This document shows, piece after piece, positions 25,182-61,680 of a stretch of 64,000 nt of DNA (the first letter of the stretch is position 1; every line of letters starts with the position of its first letter). This DNA comes from Syntrophomonadaceae bacterium (GTDB taxonomy: Bacteria; Bacillota; Syntrophomonadia; Syntrophomonadales; Syntrophomonadaceae), in contig JAAYCK010000114.1 in the NCBI GenBank assembly GCA_012729835.1, positions 1 through 64,000 of the forward strand, written 5' to 3'. The notes below the pieces were generated by a model. That model did no database searches and was not told where the DNA came from. It saw only the letters and a list, made by a program, of their open reading frames with translations. A program made the translations under genes and the position numbers.

Positions 25182-27671
25182 ATGATCAAAGAGACCCTGA
25201 AACGCTTGTTGGATGATGACGAAAGAGAGGTCAAACGCCTTCGCCAGAAGGTTGCCATAATCAATAAAATGGAACCGGAAATCGAAGCCCTGACCCCAGA
25301 AGATTTCCCCCGTCGAACCATGGAATTAAAGGAAAAATTAAAGCAGGGCCAGAATTTAAACGATATATTACCTGAAGCCTTCGCTTTGGTACGGGAAGCA
25401 TCCCGGAGAACTCTGGGGATGCGTCATTTTGATGAGCAGATGATCGGTGGCATGGTTCTGCATAATGGCCGCATCGCCGAAATGAAGACCGGTGAAGGAA
25501 AGACTCTGGTAGCCACTCTGCCCGCCTACCTGAATGCCCTGGAGGGCAAAGGGGTGCATATAGTTACGGTCAATGACTATCTAGCCAGCCGTGACGCTAA
25601 CTGGATGAGACCGGTGTACGAGTATTGCGGTTTATCCGTGGGACTCATAGTGCATGGCCTGACCTATGAAGATCGCAAGCAGGCCTATGCTTGCGACATT
25701 ACCTATGCCACCAACAATGAACTGGGGTTTGATTATCTCAGGGATAATATGGTTATTGCTTATGAGCATATGGTTCAGCGAGACCTATTCTACGCCATTA
25801 TTGATGAGGTGGACTCGATACTGGTCGATGAAGCGCGGACCCCGCTGATCATATCGGGTGAAGGGGACAAACCTACTAATCTGTATTATCAGATCGCCAA
25901 GTTTATCCCCCGCCTGATTGCGGATGAGGATTATAAAGTCGATGAAAAGGCTCACCTGGTAACGCTTACCGAGGATGGAGTCAGGAGAGTCGAGAAGCAT
26001 TTTAATGTAGATAATCTCTCAGAGAACATGGAACTAGCCCATCACGTCAACCAGGGACTTCGGGCCCACAGCCTGATGCGGCGGGACCGGGATTATGTGG
26101 TCAAGGATGATCAGGTCATCATTGTTGATGAATTCACTGGCCGTCTGATGTTTGGCAGGCGTTACAGCGATGGACTGCACCAGGCTATTGAGGCCAAGGA
26201 AGGCGTAAAGATCGAAAAGGAATCTCAGACCCTGGCTACCGTCACCTTCCAGAACTATTTCAGGATGTATAGCAAGCTGGCTGGTATGACCGGTACGGCC
26301 AAGACCGAGGAAGAAGAGTTCCGCAAGATATACAATATGGATGTGGTGGCTATCCCCACTCATATGCCGATGGTCAGGCATGACCGGGCAGATTTTGTTT
26401 ATCGCAGTGAAGAAGGTAAATTCCAGGCAGTAGTCGAAGATATAGTTGAGAGACATGCCAAGGGGCAGCCGGTACTGGTGGGCACCATTTCTATTGAAAA
26501 ATCCGAACTGCTTAGTACCATGCTGGTCAAGCGGGGTGTCACCCATCAGGTGCTCAATGCCAAACACCACGAGAAAGAGGCCCAGATTATCGCTCAGGCC
26601 GGGCAGAAAGGCACGGTTACCATTGCCACTAACATGGCTGGCCGCGGTACCGATATCGTACTGGGTGACGGTGTTACCGAATTGGGTGGCTTGTATGTTT
26701 TGGGAACTGAGCGTCATGAGGCCAGGCGTATAGATAATCAGTTGCGCGGTCGCTCGGGCCGGCAGGGAGATCCCGGCGAATCCAGGTTTTATGTTTCGCT
26801 GGAGGACGACCTGATGCGTTTATTCGGGGCTGCTACTATTGATGGTGTGATGGGCCGCCTGGGCATGGATGACAGCATGCCGATCGAAAACCGTATGGTT
26901 TCCAAAGGCATCGAGAATGCCCAGAAGAAGGTGGAAGGACGCAACTTCGGCATCCGCAAGAACGTTCTTGAATACGATGATGTGATCAACCAACAGCGAG
27001 AGGTTATTTACGGAGAGCGCCGCAAGGTCCTGACCGGCGAGAACCTCAAAGATACCATAGCCAGCATGATCGACGATGTGATAAATGCAGTGGTCGATAG
27101 CTTTGCCGGCGAGATCAGATACTCAGATGACTGGGATCTGCCCGGGTTGATGGCATATGTTGAACAGAACATCCTGCCGCATCCGAATTTTGACCTGGAA
27201 AGCCTTAAGGGCCTGACCCGTCGTCAGGTAAAAGACCTTTTAATGGAAGCAACGCATGCTCTTTATGAGACCAGGGAACAGGAACTGGGCGAGGAGACCA
27301 TGCGTGAGCTGGAAAAGGCTCTGATGCTCAGGATCATTGATGAAAAATGGATGGATCATATCGACGCCATGGACCAACTGCGCAATGGCATATCACTCAG
27401 GGCTTACGGGCAGAAGGATCCACTCATCGAATATAAATTCGAGGCTTTCGATGCCTTCCAGAGTATGATCCATAGTATAAAAGAGGATTTGCTGAGATAT
27501 ATCATGCGCATCCGGGTGGTAGAGCAGCAGGAGGAGAGAGTCACCTTTGTCAATCAAGGTGAAGAAGCGGAAAAGAAGCCGGTCAAGGTCGGTAAGAAGG
27601 TGGGGCGTAATGAGCCCTGTCCCTGTGGCAGCGGCAAGAAGTATAAGAACTGTTGCGGTAAGCAGGCTTAA
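25182..27671 (+). CDS. secA: Preprotein translocase ATPase SecA
   Basis: [38 protein letters not shown]-terminal [14 protein letters not shown]. Confidence 0.98.
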
Positions 27672-31618: not shown

Positions 31619-31817
31619 TCAGGCTCGGGAAATCAGGTCATTCGTATTAAGAGGGAGGTGGCCATTAGTATCGGCGGCAAATGCAGGTAAAATGGTAGTC
31701 CTCAGGTTTGGCATCTAATTGCAATTAGCAGTAACAATAGGAAGGAGGGAGCTGGTTTCTGGTTTATGCGGACGAGCTGAGTACAGTCAATGCATAAATT
31801 ACAGTAACTGGGAAAGA

Positions 31818-33551
31818 ATGCCAGAGTATTTATCACCAGGTGTATACGTAGAGGAGTTTGAAAGCGGCGGAAAACCAATGGAGGGTGTAAGCACCAGTAC
31901 TGCTGGTTTTTTGGGACTGGCTGAGAGAGGCCCGGTAGAAGGATTACCGGATTTGGTTACTAATTTTGGTGATTTTCAGAGGCTGTTTGGGGCCTATCTT
32001 TCTGAAAATGCCTTCGGCGATTATCGCTTTTTGGCATATGCGGTAGAACATTTCTTTATCAACGGCGGAGCCCGCGCTTACATAATGAGGGTAGCTCCCC
32101 CCGATGCCAAAGCAGCTACCAATTACACCGCCGATGACGAGGATTCTGTCCTCCTCAAGATCGCTGCTAAGAATCCCGGTCAATGGGGAGAAAAAATCCG
32201 TTTGCTGTTTACTCCAGCCAGCAAAGCCAAGACACCGATCCTCGCTATCAAAGGTGATGGCGTCTATAAAGTAAAAAACAATGCCGGTTTCAATGTAGGT
32301 GATATCGTTGTTTTTGATGACGGCGATGCACGTAGTTTCAGTCAGGTGACCATGTCCCAGGATAATGAAATTGCTCTGGCTGAAGCACTGCCCGGTGATG
32401 TAGTTGACACCGCACTGCTCCCCACCAAGACTCTTAATACCTGCGAGTTTACCCTGCAGGTGTTCTACGGCAGCGAAGCAGAAACCTATGAAAAGCTTTC
32501 CTTGAATATAGCTGCTCCCAATTATATTGAGAAGAAGGTCGCCCGTTCCAACATAATTACCCTTACCCATAATCAAGGTGTTGGCGATCCCCAGGATACT
32601 CCATTTGACAGAATAGCAGGAGATAAAGCTGGTGAAGAGCAATTCTGGGTTAGCTTGACCGGTGGCAGCGATGGATCACTGTCCGCCCTGTCGGCAGCTG
32701 ATTACATTGGAGAAGATCGGGGCCCGGGTAAGAGAACCGGCATCCAGGCTTTTATTGATAATGATGAAGTCAGTATTATGGCTGTACCCGGTGTAACCGA
32801 CCCCAATGTCCAACTCTCGCTGGTAGCCCACTGTGAAAACCTCAAGAGCCGCTTTGCGGTACTCGACATTCCGCGTGATCTGAAAAAGGTAGCCGATGTT
32901 CAGACTCATCGGAACATATTCGATACGGACTATGCCGCTATGTATCATCCCTGGCTGCAGGTTTTTGATCCCATGGACAAACGCAATATTTTCATTCCGC
33001 CCTCGGGCTCGGTAGTCGGTATATATGCAAGATCGGACAACAGTCGTGGTGTCTACAAGGCTCCGGCCAATGAAGTGGTTCGCGCTTGTGTTGGGTTAGA
33101 CTGCCAGTATAACAAAGGAGAGCAGGATATCCTTAATCCGAAGGGAATTAACCTGATTCGTTACTTTACTGGTCAGGGTATTCGAGTGTGGGGTGCTAGA
33201 ACCTGCAGTTCTAACTCTATCTGGAAATATGTCAACGTCCGCCGCCTATTTATTTTCGTGGAACAATCCATCAAGAACGGCTCCAACTGGGTTGTATTCG
33301 AACCTAATGATGAAAGATTGTGGGCAAGAGTCCAGAGAACTATCTACAGCTTCTTGCTGGGTGTTTGGAGAGGCGGAGCATTAATGGGTTCCACCCCAGA
33401 TGAGGCTTTCTTCGTTAAGGTTGACCGCTCAACCATGTCACAGGATGATATCGACAACGGACGGTTAATATGTATCATCGGTATATCACCGGTAAAACCC
33501 GCCGAGTTTGTTATCTTCAGAATCACCCAGAAGACCGCAGACAGCGAATAA
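31818..33551 (+). CDS. eCIS contractile tail sheath protein
   Basis: MPEYLSPGVYVEEFESGGKPMEGVSTSTAGFLGLAERGP; C-terminal FVEQSIKNGSNWVVFEPNDERLWARVQRTIYSFLLGVWRGGALMGSTPDEAFFVKVD. Confidence 0.95.
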   Translation: MPEYLSPGVYVEEFESGGKPMEGVSTSTAGFLGLAERGPVEGLPDLVTNFGDFQRLFGAYLSENAFGDYRFLAYAVEHFFINGGARAYIMRVAPPDAKAATNYTADDEDSVLLKIAAKNPGQWGEKIRLLFTPASKAKTPILAIKGDGVYKVKNNAGFNVGDIVVFDDGDARSFSQVTMSQDNEIALAEALPGDVVDTALLPTKTLNTCEFTLQVFYGSEAETYEKLSLNIAAPNYIEKKVARSNIITLTHNQGVGDPQDTPFDRIAGDKAGEEQFWVSLTGGSDGSLSALSAADYIGEDRGPGKRTGIQAFIDNDEVSIMAVPGVTDPNVQLSLVAHCENLKSRFAVLDIPRDLKKVADVQTHRNIFDTDYAAMYHPWLQVFDPMDKRNIFIPPSGSVVGIYARSDNSRGVYKAPANEVVRACVGLDCQYNKGEQDILNPKGINLIRYFTGQGIRVWGARTCSSNSIWKYVNVRRLFIFVEQSIKNGSNWVVFEPNDERLWARVQRTIYSFLLGVWRGGALMGSTPDEAFFVKVDRSTMSQDDIDNGRLICIIGISPVKPAEFVIFRITQKTADSE

Positions 33552-33612: not shown

Positions 33613-34068
33613 ATGGCACGAGCAGATTCATATGCCGATGACCCCTTCCGTAGTTATAGGTTTGCGATCGAGGTTGATGGTATCACCGATGCTTATTTTA
33701 CTGAAATTTCAGGAATAGAAGCCTCCTACGATGTTATTGAGTTTCGGGCCGGGAGTATGCCCAACTCGGCTTCCATCAAAATGCCGGGTCTGTATAAAAA
33801 CCCGGTAGCAGTTTTCAAACAAGGTATGACCGCCAATACTGAACTGCATGAATGGTTCATGGGTGATGCTGTGGCCCAGGGCACGGTAGAGCGCAAGGAT
33901 ATCACCGTTAAGGCAGTAGATACTGATGGTGAGACTGAACTGGCCGTTTGGGTACTCTATGATGCCTGGCCGAGCAAATACCAGGTTTCGGGCTTTAATG
34001 CCAAGGAGTCAGCGGTATCTATAGAGACTCTGGAACTGGCCTATGAAACTATGGAGAGAACCACCTAG
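33613..34068 (+). CDS. eCIS tail tube protein 1 (gp19-like)
   Basis: DPFRSYRFAIEVDGITDAYFTEISGIEASYDVIEFRAG; WPSKYQVSGFNAKESAVSIETLELAYE. Confidence 0.93.
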   Translation: MARADSYADDPFRSYRFAIEVDGITDAYFTEISGIEASYDVIEFRAGSMPNSASIKMPGLYKNPVAVFKQGMTANTELHEWFMGDAVAQGTVERKDITVKAVDTDGETELAVWVLYDAWPSKYQVSGFNAKESAVSIETLELAYETMERTT

Positions 34069-34153: not shown

Positions 34154-34516
34154 ATGTCATTTCAAACTGAATATGAATTTGAACTGCCCAGGGGCTTTAT
34201 TGATGACAACGGTGATCTTCATCGTAATGGGATAATGCGCCTGGCTACTGCCGCCGATGAGATTCTGCCCATGCGCGATCCCCGTGTCCAACAGAACCCG
34301 GGTTATCTCACGATAATCGTGTTGTCCCGAGTTATTACGAAACTGGGCTCTTTAAGAACAGTAGATACACGTGCTATTGAGAAGCTTTTTACCGCCGACT
34401 TGGCCTATTTACAAGATTTGTACCAAAGGATCAACGAGAGTGAGACCCCTAATATACGCGTGGTATGTCCGCGCTGTGAGCATGAATTCGAGACTGAAGT
34501 AAATTTTATAAGATGA
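34154..34516 (+). CDS. Phage tail assembly chaperone-like eCIS protein with C-terminal CxxC motif
   Basis: FELPRGFIDDNGDLHRNGIMRLATAADEILPMRDPRVQQNPGYL; VVCPRCEHEFETEV; position between the tube genes. Confidence 0.78.
   Translation: MSFQTEYEFELPRGFIDDNGDLHRNGIMRLATAADEILPMRDPRVQQNPGYLTIIVLSRVITKLGSLRTVDTRAIEKLFTADLAYLQDLYQRINESETPNIRVVCPRCEHEFETEVNFIR
34501..34507 (+). promoter_or_regulatory. Candidate -1 ribosomal frameshift slippery heptamer
   Basis: A AAT TTT in the zero frame of ORF 34154; the -1 frame enters ORF 34513 without a stop. Confidence 0.5.
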
Positions 34517-34719
34517 CCAGTGGAATTAAATCCTATCCTATCGACAGGATTTACGAGGAAGCTGCTTTTATCGCCTACTATTTTCACTGGCCAAATGAAC
34601 AGATAATGACCATGGAACATCGCGAGCGTCGCAGGTGGTGTGAAGAAATAACCCGCATTAATAAAAAGCTCAATGCCGAACCCGACAATCCGTTTGATGT
34701 GTTTAGTCAGAAGAGGTGA
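34513..34719 (+). CDS. Small eCIS protein (DUF6760-like)
   Basis: SYPIDRIYEEAAFIAYYFHWPNEQIMTMEHRERRRWCEEI; 4-nt overlap (ATGA) with upstream gene. Confidence 0.75.
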   Translation: MTSGIKSYPIDRIYEEAAFIAYYFHWPNEQIMTMEHRERRRWCEEITRINKKLNAEPDNPFDVFSQKR

Positions 34720-34727
34720 AAGAAAAC

Positions 34728-35186
34728 ATGAAGGACAGTGAATGGGTAAGGCCGACATTAAGCCCAGCTTTTCGTTTTGAGATAGAAATCGAAGGTATCA
34801 ACGAAGCTGAGTTTACATCAGTTCATGGTTTGGAAGCAGAGATAGAGTTAGAGCCATATCGGGAAGGCGGAGAAAACAACTTTGAATACAAATTCCCCAA
34901 ACGGACCAAATATCCCAATTTGGTACTGAAAAGAGGCATGACCGGCTCTCACCACCTTTGGAACTGGTTTCGGGCTTGCACCCAGGGACACATCACCCGC
35001 AAGGATTGTACTATAAAATTGATAAATTATAACGGAGATGTATTCTCCCAATGGACCTGTTACAAGTGTTATCCAGTAAAATGGGTAGGGCCTGACTTGA
35101 CAGCCGACCGCAGTGCGGTGGCCATAGAAACACTGGAGTTGGTCCACCAGGGATTTATGAGCGACTCCAAGCAGGGCAAGAAGTAA
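34728..35186 (+). CDS. eCIS tail tube protein 2 (gp19-like)
   Basis: PAFRFEIEIEGINEAEFTSVHGLEAEIELEPYREGGENNFEYKFP; ATG 34728 after AGAGGTGA. Confidence 0.9.
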   Translation: MKDSEWVRPTLSPAFRFEIEIEGINEAEFTSVHGLEAEIELEPYREGGENNFEYKFPKRTKYPNLVLKRGMTGSHHLWNWFRACTQGHITRKDCTIKLINYNGDVFSQWTCYKCYPVKWVGPDLTADRSAVAIETLELVHQGFMSDSKQGKK

Positions 35187-35214: not shown

Positions 35215-38200
35215 ATGGTTATATTACCTAAGAGCACAACGGCGATAGCACCAATAACACCGGTAAGTCTGGGTTTTGGCTCCAGGATCTTTGACCGTTA
35301 TGGTTGGGGTGGCTATTATTCCTGGGGTGCCCTGTTCATGCTCTTTAAAAACATGAACTTAGTCACTGCAACTGGCACCAATACTAACTCTATTTCTCTA
35401 TTTCTAAAGTATATCACCAGGCCGGGCAATCCTTTCGTCCTTCAGCATACCGGGGCTGCATTTAGCACCAGACCGGGGCTGCCGCGAATTGATGCTGGTC
35501 AGCAAATACATATAGTAAACCATCAACCGGGGAGGCCAATGGTCAGCCCCGGTTTAGTACCGTTAGAAGCAGATAGGCCCGAACTGCCGTCTGTCCTGGT
35601 AAAGACATTAAAGGAGCATGAGAAACCTTTACCGAGTGATCAGAGACCGCTCAAATACTTGTATCGCAATATCCCGGGAGGCGAGCACCTGTCTTTTTTC
35701 ACTTTGCCCGATATAAACAAGCTGTTGTTACAGTGGTCCTTCCAAAATAACAGCTATTATCAAACAAAGCCCAACTATCAGGGAGCCGGCAGAGAGCTTA
35801 TCTATCAATTATTCGGGGCGAATCCGGTGAAGTATGACCGGACCCGCAAGGAAAACCCCACGGCAGGCGGGGCTGCTATAAACTTTAACAGGAGCTATGG
35901 ATCAGATGTTCCTACATACCACCCGTTACCTGTGGTCCCGATCAATTCTTATTTTATAGACCATACAGAAGATAATAATAAGCTATTAACGCCTGAATTA
36001 CGCATGACAGATATATTTATTAGGCCATTGTCATATCAAAGGCGAGGAGGCTCACTATCTTACCAGCCACATTTTGACCGCTTTGGATTACCGGAGGGGA
36101 GTCGCGCACTTAGGATCATCGAGAGAGTTTTCCCGCAATTCCCAGCAGGGGCCGCCGGAGTTGTTTCCGGGCAGTCGGGTACTGGTCAAAGAACGGTTCC
36201 AGGGAGAAAGAACAGAGGCTACAGCAGCAATATCGTATTTAATTATCTATTGAGGCAGGGCCACGCGCCTTTTTACTTTAATAGAGTGACCTTGCCGGGT
36301 TCGCAAGGCCATATTTCGATATCTCCCCGGATTCTGCCCAACACCTGGCATGAGGGCGGGTCACCGGCCCAATATGGAGTAAATCTACGCCCGCCGGGGA
36401 CAGATAACCATACATATCAAGGGCCAAAATGGATGGAAATCCTACCCGGTGAAAAAGCGGAGACTAGACAATATCGTTTGCATAACTTAGTCAAGACCAT
36501 TCGAACCGCTGTTCTTCTAGCAGCTATCCGCGGCGCCGGGGCAAATCATGGTATATCGATGCCGTTACTGCTCCCGGCCGGAACTGAATTGATTCCAAAT
36601 CTGAATATTACAAGCCCTGCCCCCAACCGGGTACCTTATCAGGAGTATGGTCAGGTTGGTTTGCCGCTGATCCATCTGCAGCATGAGAGCCCGGCAGCGC
36701 CAGGTCAGGCATTATTCCAGGCCGGGAAGGCAGCTCTTACCAATGAGAACAGGATAGCAGCAGGAGTGACGGGCCATATATCACAGCCGGCATTTGTTTA
36801 TTGGCAGCAGTCTTTGCCGTCAGTAAGTGACATACCGCGAAAGGCTGGATTCGCTAGCCCTGCCCCCAACCGGGTACCTTATCGGGAGTCTGCCCAGGTT
36901 GGTTTGCCACTGATCTTTCTGCAGCCGGAGAGCCCGGCGGCATGGCCAGGTAACATATTATTCCAGGCTGGACTGGCAGCTCTGACCAATGAGACCAGAA
37001 TAGCAGCAGGAGTGACGGGCCATATATCACAGCCGGCATTTGTTTACGGGCAGCAGTCTTTGCCGGCAGTAAGTGAAATTCCGCAAAAGGCTGGACTCGC
37101 TAAACCGGAATTGCCCTTGGGAGAGATTTTGGCGGCTAGCATGATCAATAAAGAGCGTCGTGTGAATTATGGGAAGTGGCTGCTCACACAGTCTTTGTTC
37201 GCAGAGCAATCGCCAACTAGAGCAGTAGCTATAAAGTCTCTCGGAAACCAAGTAATCAACCGGCAGCTGCCGCTTATATTTTTGGTCCAACACCTGACCA
37301 GATTGGGTGCGGACTTGCAATCGCTGAACCGGTTAAGCGATAGTCCCAGCACTGTTCACGTTGCGCCAACCGCAGCGAGGGGATATAACAGCAAGGAAAA
37401 TGCAGTGAACAGGCCATTGATGAAAAAAGCTGACCGGCGTTCCGCTAAGAATCATCAATCCAGTGCATCCGGGCAAGTAGGTGAAAGGTCTACATCAACC
37501 GATGTGAACCGTTCTGATAGATATACAGGAGATGTTCTGCAGAGGTCGACAGCAAGTTATCCCGTACTAATTGATCATTTTCCCGTTCAATACTGGTCTG
37601 AATATAATCAGGTTATCCAGTCGGCGTTATTGGACTCAGTGAAAACGGAGACAGCTAGGTCTAAGCTGGCTGAGAAAGCTCGGTTTTGGCAACAGCCAGC
37701 ACAGGGAACGTGGCATTTGGCTGAAGTCCTGGGCAGGGTTCCCCTGACCGGTCGTCATGGTGACATCAAGCCGGCATCCATTATGCAGTATCGCTTGCCA
37801 GCACAGCAAGGACTGTCTGCCGCTAACTCGATGGTGGAATGGATGATCAGGAAGGTCGCTGGTGATAGCAGACAGGCGTTGGGAAATCATTCATCCATAT
37901 CGCGCGAGGCAGCGCCTGATCAGCTGAAGCCATCGCCGGTGCCGATTTCACCAAGAGGATATTCGGGTGCTATACTTAACGCCCGTGAGCATAGTTTAAA
38001 TACCATACAAGCTTATCGGTCAACGGAGAGCAGGGACACGATCAACTACAGGTCTCTGGTTTATCAAGACCAGTATCGGGGTGGGGGAGAATATAACAAG
38101 CGTTTCAGCCGATTACGTAATGGCAATCAGGTCAGTAGACTTACACCAAATAACGCCCCGGTAGCTGGGCAGGCAACCGGTACGGATACAACGCCCCACT

Positions 38201-39231
38201 CATATCGGGCTACCGAACCGGCGGGAGTGGGTTTAACTAGAATGCCCAGTGAAGGGCCGGCGATTGTGCAGAGGGCACGTGATATCTCGCTAGCCGAAAG
38301 CAGTCGCCAGATTGTTCCAGTCAGGATAGCTGAACGAGCCATGCAAAGGATGGCTGAGATAAAACCTATTGTGCTATACCGGAACCAAAGGCCATTGTTA
38401 ACGAACACAGCCAAGAAGCGGGATGAACCCAGGCGGGATTTCAGTTCTGAACCAATACACCATACTGGAAATGCCTCCTGGAGTATAGCCAAGCAGGAAT
38501 TCATATCCCGCTCGAATATGGACCAGATCAACCTATCAGTTTCGCCTGAACACCGGGCTGAAAGAGTTTATCGGGCAAATACTGCTCCGATTCAAGTCAA
38601 TACTGAAAATATAGCTCGCAGGATCACCAGAGTGGCGGTGGCTATGCCGGGTGGTGATAATAGCAGAGCAACAATTCTGGCTGCAAGCCCGGAGGAGAGT
38701 CGGGTTACACCGGCGATTAACCCTCCACTACAACTTAAGCGGATTGTTGACCTGCCAACAGGAGCATTGACCAGAAGGTCTTATACTAACAATTTACAAA
38801 CCGTTGCTTATGTGCCGGTGATGGACCGTGATCGCGGAGCGTCCTCCCGAATCGGGGAACTAGCACGGTGGGGGCCCTACCAGGAGGCCGTGGCCGCAGG
38901 AGCTTCTCGGGGACACCGACAGGAAACAGAGACAATAATACTCTACCAGGATCGCTGGCATAACCGTATAAATAGTAGTTCTGAGTCACCAGGTTTAGCA
39001 TCAGTTCCAGGAATCGAGCTTAACCACCGCCGCGAGGCTTTATCCTCAGAGAAGGCCAATGAACCCGCCATGCCGGTACTGACCCCGGAGGCGGTGCAGG
39101 AGCAGATCGAGGCCAGTAAGGCTGAGGTACCGCACCGGATGAGTACTGCTGAGATAAGGAGTATCGCAGATCGGGTTTATAATGAGATTCAGCGGAAAAT
39201 GAAGATAGATCGCCAGTGCCGGGGGATATGA
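35215..39231 (+). CDS. 1338-aa low-complexity eCIS protein in the tape-measure position (function unknown)
   Basis: Long open frame rich in P/R/G/Y, internal 81-82-aa tandem repeat, C-terminal helix EIRSIADRVYNEIQRKMKIDRQCRGI. Confidence 0.85.
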   Translation: MVILPKSTTAIAPITPVSLGFGSRIFDRYGWGGYYSWGALFMLFKNMNLVTATGTNTNSISLFLKYITRPGNPFVLQHTGAAFSTRPGLPRIDAGQQIHIVNHQPGRPMVSPGLVPLEADRPELPSVLVKTLKEHEKPLPSDQRPLKYLYRNIPGGEHLSFFTLPDINKLLLQWSFQNNSYYQTKPNYQGAGRELIYQLFGANPVKYDRTRKENPTAGGAAINFNRSYGSDVPTYHPLPVVPINSYFIDHTEDNNKLLTPELRMTDIFIRPLSYQRRGGSLSYQPHFDRFGLPEGSRALRIIERVFPQFPAGAAGVVSGQSGTGQRTVPGRKNRGYSSNIVFNYLLRQGHAPFYFNRVTLPGSQGHISISPRILPNTWHEGGSPAQYGVNLRPPGTDNHTYQGPKWMEILPGEKAETRQYRLHNLVKTIRTAVLLAAIRGAGANHGISMPLLLPAGTELIPNLNITSPAPNRVPYQEYGQVGLPLIHLQHESPAAPGQALFQAGKAALTNENRIAAGVTGHISQPAFVYWQQSLPSVSDIPRKAGFASPAPNRVPYRESAQVGLPLIFLQPESPAAWPGNILFQAGLAALTNETRIAAGVTGHISQPAFVYGQQSLPAVSEIPQKAGLAKPELPLGEILAASMINKERRVNYGKWLLTQSLFAEQSPTRAVAIKSLGNQVINRQLPLIFLVQHLTRLGADLQSLNRLSDSPSTVHVAPTAARGYNSKENAVNRPLMKKADRRSAKNHQSSASGQVGERSTSTDVNRSDRYTGDVLQRSTASYPVLIDHFPVQYWSEYNQVIQSALLDSVKTETARSKLAEKARFWQQPAQGTWHLAEVLGRVPLTGRHGDIKPASIMQYRLPAQQGLSAANSMVEWMIRKVAGDSRQALGNHSSISREAAPDQLKPSPVPISPRGYSGAILNAREHSLNTIQAYRSTESRDTINYRSLVYQDQYRGGGEYNKRFSRLRNGNQVSRLTPNNAPVAGQATGTDTTPHSYRATEPAGVGLTRMPSEGPAIVQRARDISLAESSRQIVPVRIAERAMQRMAEIKPIVLYRNQRPLLTNTAKKRDEPRRDFSSEPIHHTGNASWSIAKQEFISRSNMDQINLSVSPEHRAERVYRANTAPIQVNTENIARRITRVAVAMPGGDNSRATILAASPEESRVTPAINPPLQLKRIVDLPTGALTRRSYTNNLQTVAYVPVMDRDRGASSRIGELARWGPYQEAVAAGASRGHRQETETIILYQDRWHNRINSSSESPGLASVPGIELNHRREALSSEKANEPAMPVLTPEAVQEQIEASKAEVPHRMSTAEIRSIADRVYNEIQRKMKIDRQCRGI
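36613..37101 (+). repeat. Tandem duplication (243 + 246 nt) in the 1338-aa ORF
   Basis: SPAPNRVPYxExxQVGLPLIxLQxESPAA...RIAAGVTGHISQPAFVYxQQSLPxVSxIPxKAGxA occurs twice in tandem. Confidence 0.92.
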
Positions 39232-60578: not shown

Positions 60579-61680
60579 TTGCTGGAAGATCCCCGGGCAG
60601 TATGCCTGGACATAATTGACCGCCTTAACGAAATGAGGGGTCCTCTTTGACATCGACAGCCGTAAGCTGGAGATAGTAGAGCTGCATAAGAAAACGTTGG
60701 GAGAAAACTTCTGGAATGATAATCAGGAAGCCGGTCGCATACTTAAACGGGTAAGTGAACTGGAAGAGGGTATCAACCGTTACGAAGGGTTACTGGAATC
60801 TGCAAACTACATGAAAGATCTGCTGGAAATGGCTGCGCTGGAAGAAGATCAGGGGCTTTACAAAGACACCGTCCGCGAAGTAGCAGAATTGCAGAAGAAG
60901 TTTCGCGATTTTGAACTGGTGGTGTTGTTCTCCGGGCCTCATGATGACCGCAACGCCATTCTTTCTTTGCATGCCGGAGCAGGTGGTACCGAGGCTCAGG
61001 ATTGGGTCCAGATGCTTTTCCGCATGTACAGCCGTTGGGCAGATGATTCCAATTACGAAACCGAGATACTGGATTACCTCGATGGGGATGAAGCCGGCAT
61101 TAAAAGTGTGACTTTTATGGTCAAAGGACGCTACGCCTTTGGTAAAATGAAATGCGAAGAAGGAGTGCACCGTCTGATTCGGATATCCCCCTTCGATTCA
61201 TCAGGGCGGCGCCATACCTCCTTTGCTTCGGTATCGGTCTTGCCAGAGATTCTGGAAAATGTAGAAGTGTCCATCAATCCTGAAGAATTACGGATCGATA
61301 CTTACCGTTCCGGCGGCGCCGGAGGGCAGCATGTGAACAAAACCGATTCCGCTGTCAGGATAACTCATCTGCCAACCGGAATCGTAGTACAATGTCAGAA
61401 CGAACGCTCCCAACATGCCAATCGTTTGTCGGCTATGAAGATATTGTCCGCCCGTCTCTACGAGGTAAAGGAAAGGGAGATGCAAAACCAGATGGAGGGG
61501 CTTAAAGGCGACTTAAAGGATATCGCCTGGGGCAGCCAGATAAGAACCTATACCATGAACCCGTTCAGCCTGGTCAAGGACCACCGGACCAACCTGGAGG
61601 TGGGCAATGTGGGGGCAGTAATGGACGGCGACCTCGACGACTTCATCTACGCCTACCTGCATTTGAAGGCGGGGAGCTAG
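60579..61680 (+). CDS. prfB: Peptide chain release factor 2 with programmed +1 frameshift; join(60579..60647,60649..61680)
   Basis: TTG start, MLEDPRAVCLDIIDRLNEMRGPL then CTT TGA C at 60645-60651; resumes DIDSRKLEIVELHKKTLGENFWND; GGQ motif GGAGGQHVNKTDSAVR. Confidence 0.95.

What the first reader, a model, noticed from the sequence alone, without database searches (positions are those of the whole stretch)
34480..34560. Candidate programmed -1 frameshift fusing two small eCIS genes, as in phage tail-assembly chaperones (G/GT)
Seen: ORF 34154-34516 ends ...GAA GTA AAT TTT ATA AGA TGA. The heptamer A AAT TTT (34501-34507) is in the X XXY YYZ phase of that frame. A -1 slip gives TAT AAG ATG ACC..., entering ORF 34513 with no stop. 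ORF 34513 overlaps by 4 nt and has no good ribosome site. A 7-bp stem AAATCCT/AGGATTT (34528-34534/34546-34552) lies downstream. Known: tailed phages often place a frameshifted G/GT pair between tube and tape-measure genes, the same position as here. I am not aware of this being described for eCIS. Translational coupling through ATGA is the main alternative.
Basis: partly seen in the sequence, partly recalled or inferred. Interest (0 to 1): 0.8.

Follow-up and report, generated by a model that had tools for sequence, protein, structure and literature searches.

The report
Frameshift-made assembly chaperone in bacterial nanosyringes
Two small overlapping genes in a bacterial contractile injection machine are almost certainly joined by a deliberate ribosome slip into one longer protein, the trick phages use to build tails to the right length, and the signal is kept in relatives from soil bacteria to archaea.

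Summary
In detail: A_AAT_TTT (34501-34507) lies in phase near the end of ORF1 (34154-34516), and ORF2 (34513-34719, DUF6760/PF20546) continues in the -1 frame. I read 121 homologous junctions from Bacillota, Actinomycetota, Pseudomonadota, Cyanobacteriota, Spirochaetota, archaea and IMG/VR contigs. DUF6760 is in the -1 frame in all 121, and 118 carry an in-phase slippery site (A_AAT_TTT, T_TTT_TTN, G_GGG_GAR, G_GGA_AAC or C_CCT_TTT). Most have no start codon for DUF6760. In the window's own family the slip site is present in 8/8, but the ATG is absent in 4 of 8. The window's ATG has no Shine-Dalgarno sequence. ORF1 matches a tail-assembly-chaperone family in 33/33 homologues. In phage-like relatives the pair sits directly before a true tape-measure gene. 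So this is an eCIS counterpart of phage G/GT, with DUF6760 as the T domain. In the G_GGG_GAR lineages a different downstream stem is supported by folding energy and covariation. Frameshift efficiency and the fusion protein are not shown experimentally. I found no description of this for eCIS in the open-access papers searched.

The parts
34154..34516 (+). ORF1, G-like tail assembly chaperone with a C-terminal CPxC zinc-ribbon-like half
   Evidence: phrog_508 tail assembly chaperone in 33/33 homologues; predicted fold (pLDDT 85) matches phage 'baseplate hub assembly, T4-like' proteins, best E 3.9e-8
34501..34507 (+). slippery heptamer A_AAT_TTT in ORF1 phase
   Evidence: direct reading; kept in 8/8 family members; in-phase slip sites in 118/121 homologous junctions
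34507..34719 (+). -1 frame T-like domain (DUF6760, PF20546); with ORF1 it gives a GT-like fusion of 188 aa
   Evidence: PF20546 E 3.2e-16; frame open to 34498 (open frame of 73 codons)
34513..34515 (+). ATG overlapping the ORF1 stop (ATGA); probably incidental or a minor coupled start
   Evidence: no SD, 0.2 kcal/mol; absent in family members L115, L118, L119, L120
34527..34553 (+).
   Evidence: present, but not conserved in the family and not significant against synonymous recoding
33613..34068 (+). inner tube protein 1 (Phage_T4_gp19), upstream neighbour
   Evidence: PF06841 E 5.5e-37
34716..35186 (+). inner tube protein 2 (likely start ATG 34731), downstream neighbour
   Evidence: PF06841 E 1.8e-46; CIS5-like; SD at 34731
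35215..39231 (+). 1338-aa protein of unknown family in the place where a tape-measure or tape-measure-related cargo gene would be expected
   Evidence: no Pfam or PHROG match; position only

Best explanation
ORF1 and ORF2 are one recoded gene, the eCIS counterpart of phage G/GT. Most ribosomes finish ORF1 and make the short G-like chaperone. A minority slip back one base on A_AAT_TTT and read on into DUF6760, making a 188-aa GT-like fusion. By analogy with lambda, many copies of G and few of GT would coat the tape-measure or cargo protein. The T-like DUF6760 part would recruit tube subunits (encoded on both sides of the pair), and both forms would leave before the particle is finished. Shown here by comparison: conserved -1 frame, conserved in-phase slip site, frequent lack of any start codon, chaperone homology, and in phage-like relatives the order tube, G/GT, tape measure. 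Inferred: slip efficiency, protein ratio, binding partners, and absence from the mature particle.
For: -1 relation in 121/121 junctions and in-phase slip site in 118/121. No ATG/GTG/TTG between slip site and conserved core in 73 of 109 loci. Slip site in 8/8 family members while the ATG is missing in 4. No SD at the window ATG. Slip codons are the ones needed among synonyms: across lineages under 80% identical in ORF1, 38 use A_AAT_TTT, 17 T_TTT_TTN and 19 G_GGG_GAR, with joint synonymous probabilities of 1e-41, 1e-30 and 1e-20, uncorrected for grouping by motif. GGGGGAA is the same motif reported for about a thousand actinophage tail-chaperone frameshifts (PMC10885494). ORF1 = phrog_508 tail assembly chaperone in 33/33. 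In IMG/VR relatives the pair precedes a tape-measure gene (PF10145, phrog_28). A downstream stem in the G_GGG_GAR group has mean z -2.3 against synonymous recoding and covariation above all shuffles and slid controls.
Against: No expression data. The window, and some relatives such as Streptomyces, also have an ATGA/GTGA overlap that could allow coupled reinitiation. No conserved stimulatory structure was demonstrated for the window's own lineage, and the upstream SD-like trend is weak. Two Brevibacillus loci have no good heptamer but do have ATGA with an SD-like stretch, so a separate or coupled protein can apparently serve. One locus (L042) has neither. Many of the loci are related, so the counts are not independent.
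Confidence: 0.91

Rival explanations
1. Translational coupling: DUF6760 is a separate protein started at the ATGA overlap by ribosomes that have just finished ORF1, with no fusion.
For: Window ATGA. Nostoc, Streptomyces and Haloferax DUF6760 are annotated as separate CDS with 4-nt overlaps. Brevibacillus L032/L035 have ATGA preceded by GGAGGG and no canonical heptamer.
Against: Most relatives have no start codon at all, and half of the window's family lack the ATG but keep the heptamer. No SD at the window ATG. Where GTGA is annotated in Streptomyces the in-phase G_GGG_GAA is also present at -10. The Nostoc 'start' can only be ATA.
Confidence: 0.06
2. Both routes operate in the window: low-level frameshifting makes GT and coupled reinitiation adds some free DUF6760. 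(This overlaps with the best explanation rather than excluding it.)
For: Window and relatives L113, L114, L116 keep both a heptamer and an ATG near the stop.
Against: The ATG has no SD and is not conserved.
Confidence: 0.2
3. Transcriptional slippage on the homopolymer run, rather than ribosomal slippage, makes the fusion.
For: Some relatives have T6 or G5-6 runs.
Against: The window has only A3T4, too short by general knowledge of RNA polymerase slippage. Slip sites are kept in ribosomal codon phase while their letters change freely between lineages.
Confidence: 0.02
4. Chance heptamer in an ordinary overlapping gene pair.
For: A -1 relation follows automatically from any ATGA overlap.
Against: Conservation in 118/121 junctions against 5.5 per 1000 codons elsewhere, and many junctions have no ATGA.
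Confidence: 0.01

Closest known systems
Phage lambda G/GT tail assembly chaperones (-1 frameshift; reviewed in PMC5009743)
   Same: Small chaperone followed by a -1-frame extension with an in-phase slip site, in the tail-tube gene region; ORF1 belongs to a tail-assembly-chaperone family.
   Different: Sits in a bacterial eCIS cluster, not a phage. T domain is DUF6760, for which no homology to lambda T was found. The pair lies between two tube genes and the downstream large gene is not a recognisable tape measure.
Actinophage tail assembly chaperone frameshifts with GGGGGAA (PRFect 'fivetwo' motif, PMC10885494)
   Same: Identical slip motif G_GGG_GAA in the eCIS relatives from Actinomycetota, Pseudomonadota, Cyanobacteriota, Spirochaetota and ANME archaea.
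   Different: Those are genes of actinobacterial phages (SEA-PHAGES set); no sequence relation was tested. The window's lineage uses A_AAT_TTT.
Phage Mu tail assembly protein gp41 (Pfam Gp41_Mu)
   Same: Contractile tail; one ORF1 homologue gives a weak Gp41_Mu match (E 0.0065).
   Different: By general knowledge Mu uses a -2 slip; the match is weak and in 1 of 33 members.
T4 gp51/gp26-like baseplate hub assembly proteins
   Same: Predicted ORF1 fold matches several such predicted phage proteins (E 3.9e-8 to 5e-4).
   Different: T4 itself is reported not to use the G/GT frameshift (PMC5009743); most of those matches are longer proteins and no frameshift was examined there.
Streptomyces davawensis CIS with tape-measure-related effector Tme (PMC11126660)
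   Same: A CIS whose largest gene, next to baseplate genes, is a tape-measure relative, so a chaperone for it is plausible.
   Different: No G/GT-like pair or frameshift appeared in the passages read; the window's large gene has no detectable relation to Tme.

Membership tests
Phage-type G/GT frameshift tail assembly chaperone | Two ORFs in -1 relation with an open overlap at the slip site | tested here: met
   121/121 junctions
Phage-type G/GT frameshift tail assembly chaperone | Conserved in-phase slippery sequence near the end of the first ORF | tested here: met
   118/121; exceptions L032, L035, L042
Phage-type G/GT frameshift tail assembly chaperone | First ORF homologous to a known tail assembly chaperone family | tested here: met
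   phrog_508 in 33/33 members, best E 6e-10
Phage-type G/GT frameshift tail assembly chaperone | T domain homologous to a known T domain | tested here: inconclusive
   DUF6760 predicted as three helices; no viral structural match at E<=0.001
Phage-type G/GT frameshift tail assembly chaperone | Gene order tube, G/GT, tape measure | tested here: inconclusive
   Met in phage-like relatives L111, L112, L126. In the window a second tube gene and then an unknown 1338-aa gene follow
Phage-type G/GT frameshift tail assembly chaperone | Fusion made at a low, defined ratio; G binds tape measure, T binds tube; absent from mature particle | not testable with these tools
   needs experiments
eCIS gene cluster | Sheath, gp19-type tubes, LysM/CIS_tube, hub/spike, gp25, baseplate, AAA ATPase and cap-like genes without capsid genes | tested here: met
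   Sheath, two tubes, CIS_tube and hub by Pfam; spike, gp25, baseplate J and AAA ATPase by reading translations; same order in annotated Nostoc plasmid cluster L097
DUF6760 (PF20546) | Match over the curated cut-off | tested here: met
   59.6 bits against cut-off 27

The most novel reading that the evidence does not exclude
A G/GT-type recoded assembly chaperone is an ancient, near-universal part of the DUF6760-bearing eCIS lineages across bacteria and archaea. DUF6760 is never, or hardly ever, a gene of its own but the T domain of a frameshift fusion, and its stimulatory RNA stem and slip site have been replaced lineage by lineage.
Probability: 0.8. Interest if true: 0.75.

Novelty: new variant of a known kind. 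Interest (0 to 1): 0.7.

Why it matters
It assigns a role to a family of unknown function (DUF6760) and shows that annotation pipelines split or miss the gene. It says that non-viral injection machines kept the phage way of setting a chaperone ratio. It makes length control and cargo packaging in eCIS, which are being engineered as protein delivery devices, directly testable with point changes in a laboratory strain. The lineage-by-lineage swaps of slip site (A_AAT_TTT, T_TTT_TTN, G_GGG_GAR) are also a natural data set on which slip sites are interchangeable.

Tried and rejected
Upstream SD-like stimulator: native pairing is stronger than synonymous controls on average (for example -5.6 against -3.2 in the T group), but few or no single loci are significant, so left as a weak trend. 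PDB fold search of ORF1: no significant match; the B. subtilis protein YqbN (3klu, prob 0.33) is only suggestive. Fold search of DUF6760 against viral proteins: nothing significant. DUF6760 and ORF1 against INPHARED phages: no match. Identity of the 1338-aa gene as tape measure: no match found, left open. Locus L014 was set aside because its ORF1 is disrupted or unclear; by eye its last ORF1-like codons also carry TTG GGG GAA in -1 relation to DUF6760.

Full report
Observation. The window (contig C108 of a 3.1-Mb genome) carries an eCIS cluster: sheath 31719-33551, tube 1 33613-34068, ORF1 34154-34516, ORF2 34513-34719, tube 2 34716-35186, a 1338-aa gene, then CIS_tube, hub, spike, gp25, baseplate and ATPase genes. 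ORF1 ends GAA GTA AAT TTT ATA AGA TGA, so A_AAT_TTT (34501-34507) is in slip phase. ORF2 is in the -1 frame and open back to 34498.

What the two genes are. ORF2 is DUF6760 (PF20546, E 3e-16). ORF1 matches PHROG family 508, tail assembly chaperone, weakly by itself (E 1.5e-5) but in 33 of 33 homologues (best E 6e-10). Its predicted fold (mean pLDDT 85) matches phage proteins labelled T4-like baseplate hub assembly (E 4e-8 and weaker). DUF6760 is predicted as three helices.

Comparison of junctions. Relatives came from 398 genomes of the phylum, 80 loci of the GTDB collection, plasmid records, IMG/VR and the window's own family and class. Counted together without duplicates there are 121 readable junctions: 109, 5 further family members, and 7 further viral contigs. 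DUF6760 is in the -1 frame in all of them, and 118 have an in-phase slip site. The sites are A_AAT_TTT 47, T_TTT_TTN 34, G_GGG_GAR 20, plus G_GGG_GGA, C_CCT_TTT, and in Haloferax G_GGA_AAC. GGGGGAA is the motif reported for actinophage tail assembly chaperones (PMC10885494). The background in other ORFs of the same loci is 5.5 in-phase XXXYYYZ sites per 1000 codons, and 0.145 for A_AAT_TTT.

Frameshift against coupling. In 73 of 109 loci no ATG, GTG or TTG lies between the slip site and the conserved core of DUF6760. In the window's own family and order all eight loci keep A_AAT_TTT. Four (L115, L118, L119, L120) have no usable start, L115 because its stop is TAA where the window has TGA. The window's ATG has no SD. 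In two Brevibacillus loci the heptamer is broken and an ATGA preceded by GGAGGG is present, as if coupling had replaced slipping there. The annotation follows the same difficulty: Nostoc DUF6760 is listed as a CDS that can only begin at ATA, and in Brasilonema it is not listed although its neighbours are (PLSDB tables are incomplete).

Signals around the slip site. In the G_GGG_GAR group the RNA after the slip site is more stable than synonymous recodings of the same protein (mean z -2.3, 68% of loci below p 0.05). The A group (z -1.1) and T group (z -0.6) show less, and the window gives z -1.48, p 0.08. A stem pairing the GGC-TAC-C codons with the G-GTA-GCC codons, with its left arm a few bases (about 3-9) after the heptamer, shows 12 doubly changed cells and a covariation score of 0.206 (0 of 500 shuffles as high; slid controls 0.05-0.14). 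Some Streptomyces loci pair in a different register.

Link to phages. In IMG/VR contigs L111, L112 and L126 the homologous pair, again in -1 relation with slip sites, is followed directly by a tape-measure protein (PF10145, E 1e-28 to 7e-45; phrog_28). L111 also has a sheath match and two gp19-type tubes before the pair. That is the phage order sheath, tube, G/GT, tape measure, so the function inferred from lambda is reasonable here. In the eCIS the pair sits between the two tube genes, and the large gene after tube 2 has no detectable family. In the S. davawensis CIS a tape-measure-related effector is the largest gene, immediately upstream of the baseplate genes (PMC11126660).

What is known. 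Full-text searches of the open-access library found no paper with 'contractile injection system' and 'programmed frameshift', none naming DUF6760, and no relevant statement in the papers that hold 'contractile injection' with 'ribosomal frameshifting' or 'tail assembly chaperone' that I opened. Subscription papers and preprints are not covered, so novelty is probable, not proven. The mechanism itself is long known for phages.

Verdict. A -1 programmed frameshift making a GT-like fusion is the best explanation (0.91), inferred from comparison only. The efficiency, ratio and partners are untested.

Noticed in passing
window 60579-61680, slip site 60645-60651: prfB (release factor 2) with the classic +1 recoding site CTT TGA C preceded by AGGGG: a known recoding signal in the same window.
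   Followed up: partly
window 25182-27671 and 60579-61680: The eCIS cluster and its neighbours lie between secA and prfB, which are usually adjacent in Bacillota (general knowledge), so the cluster looks inserted there.
   Followed up: no
window 35215-39231: 1338-aa protein, rich in Pro/Tyr/Gln/Arg, no Pfam or PHROG match, in the place of a tape measure or cargo gene.
   Followed up: partly
L032 and L035, around 5000: Brevibacillus eCIS: slip heptamer degraded to T_TTT_TCA, but ATGA start with upstream GGAGGG present; possible switch from frameshifting to coupling.
   Followed up: partly
L111, L112, L125, L126, L127: Phage-like contractile tail loci in IMG/VR with DUF6760-type GT directly before a tape-measure-like gene; INPHARED has no match to DUF6760.
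   Followed up: partly
L108 1114-2516: Treponema plasmid: an ISAs1 transposase gene ends about 40 bases before a short annotated remnant of the ORF1 homologue; the ORF1 start may be lost, yet G_GGG_GAA and the -1 frame remain.
   Followed up: no
L099, L104, L110 near 2507: Streptomyces-type loci have a downstream stem in another register (GTACGC/GCGTAC), together with a GTGA overlap.
   Followed up: no
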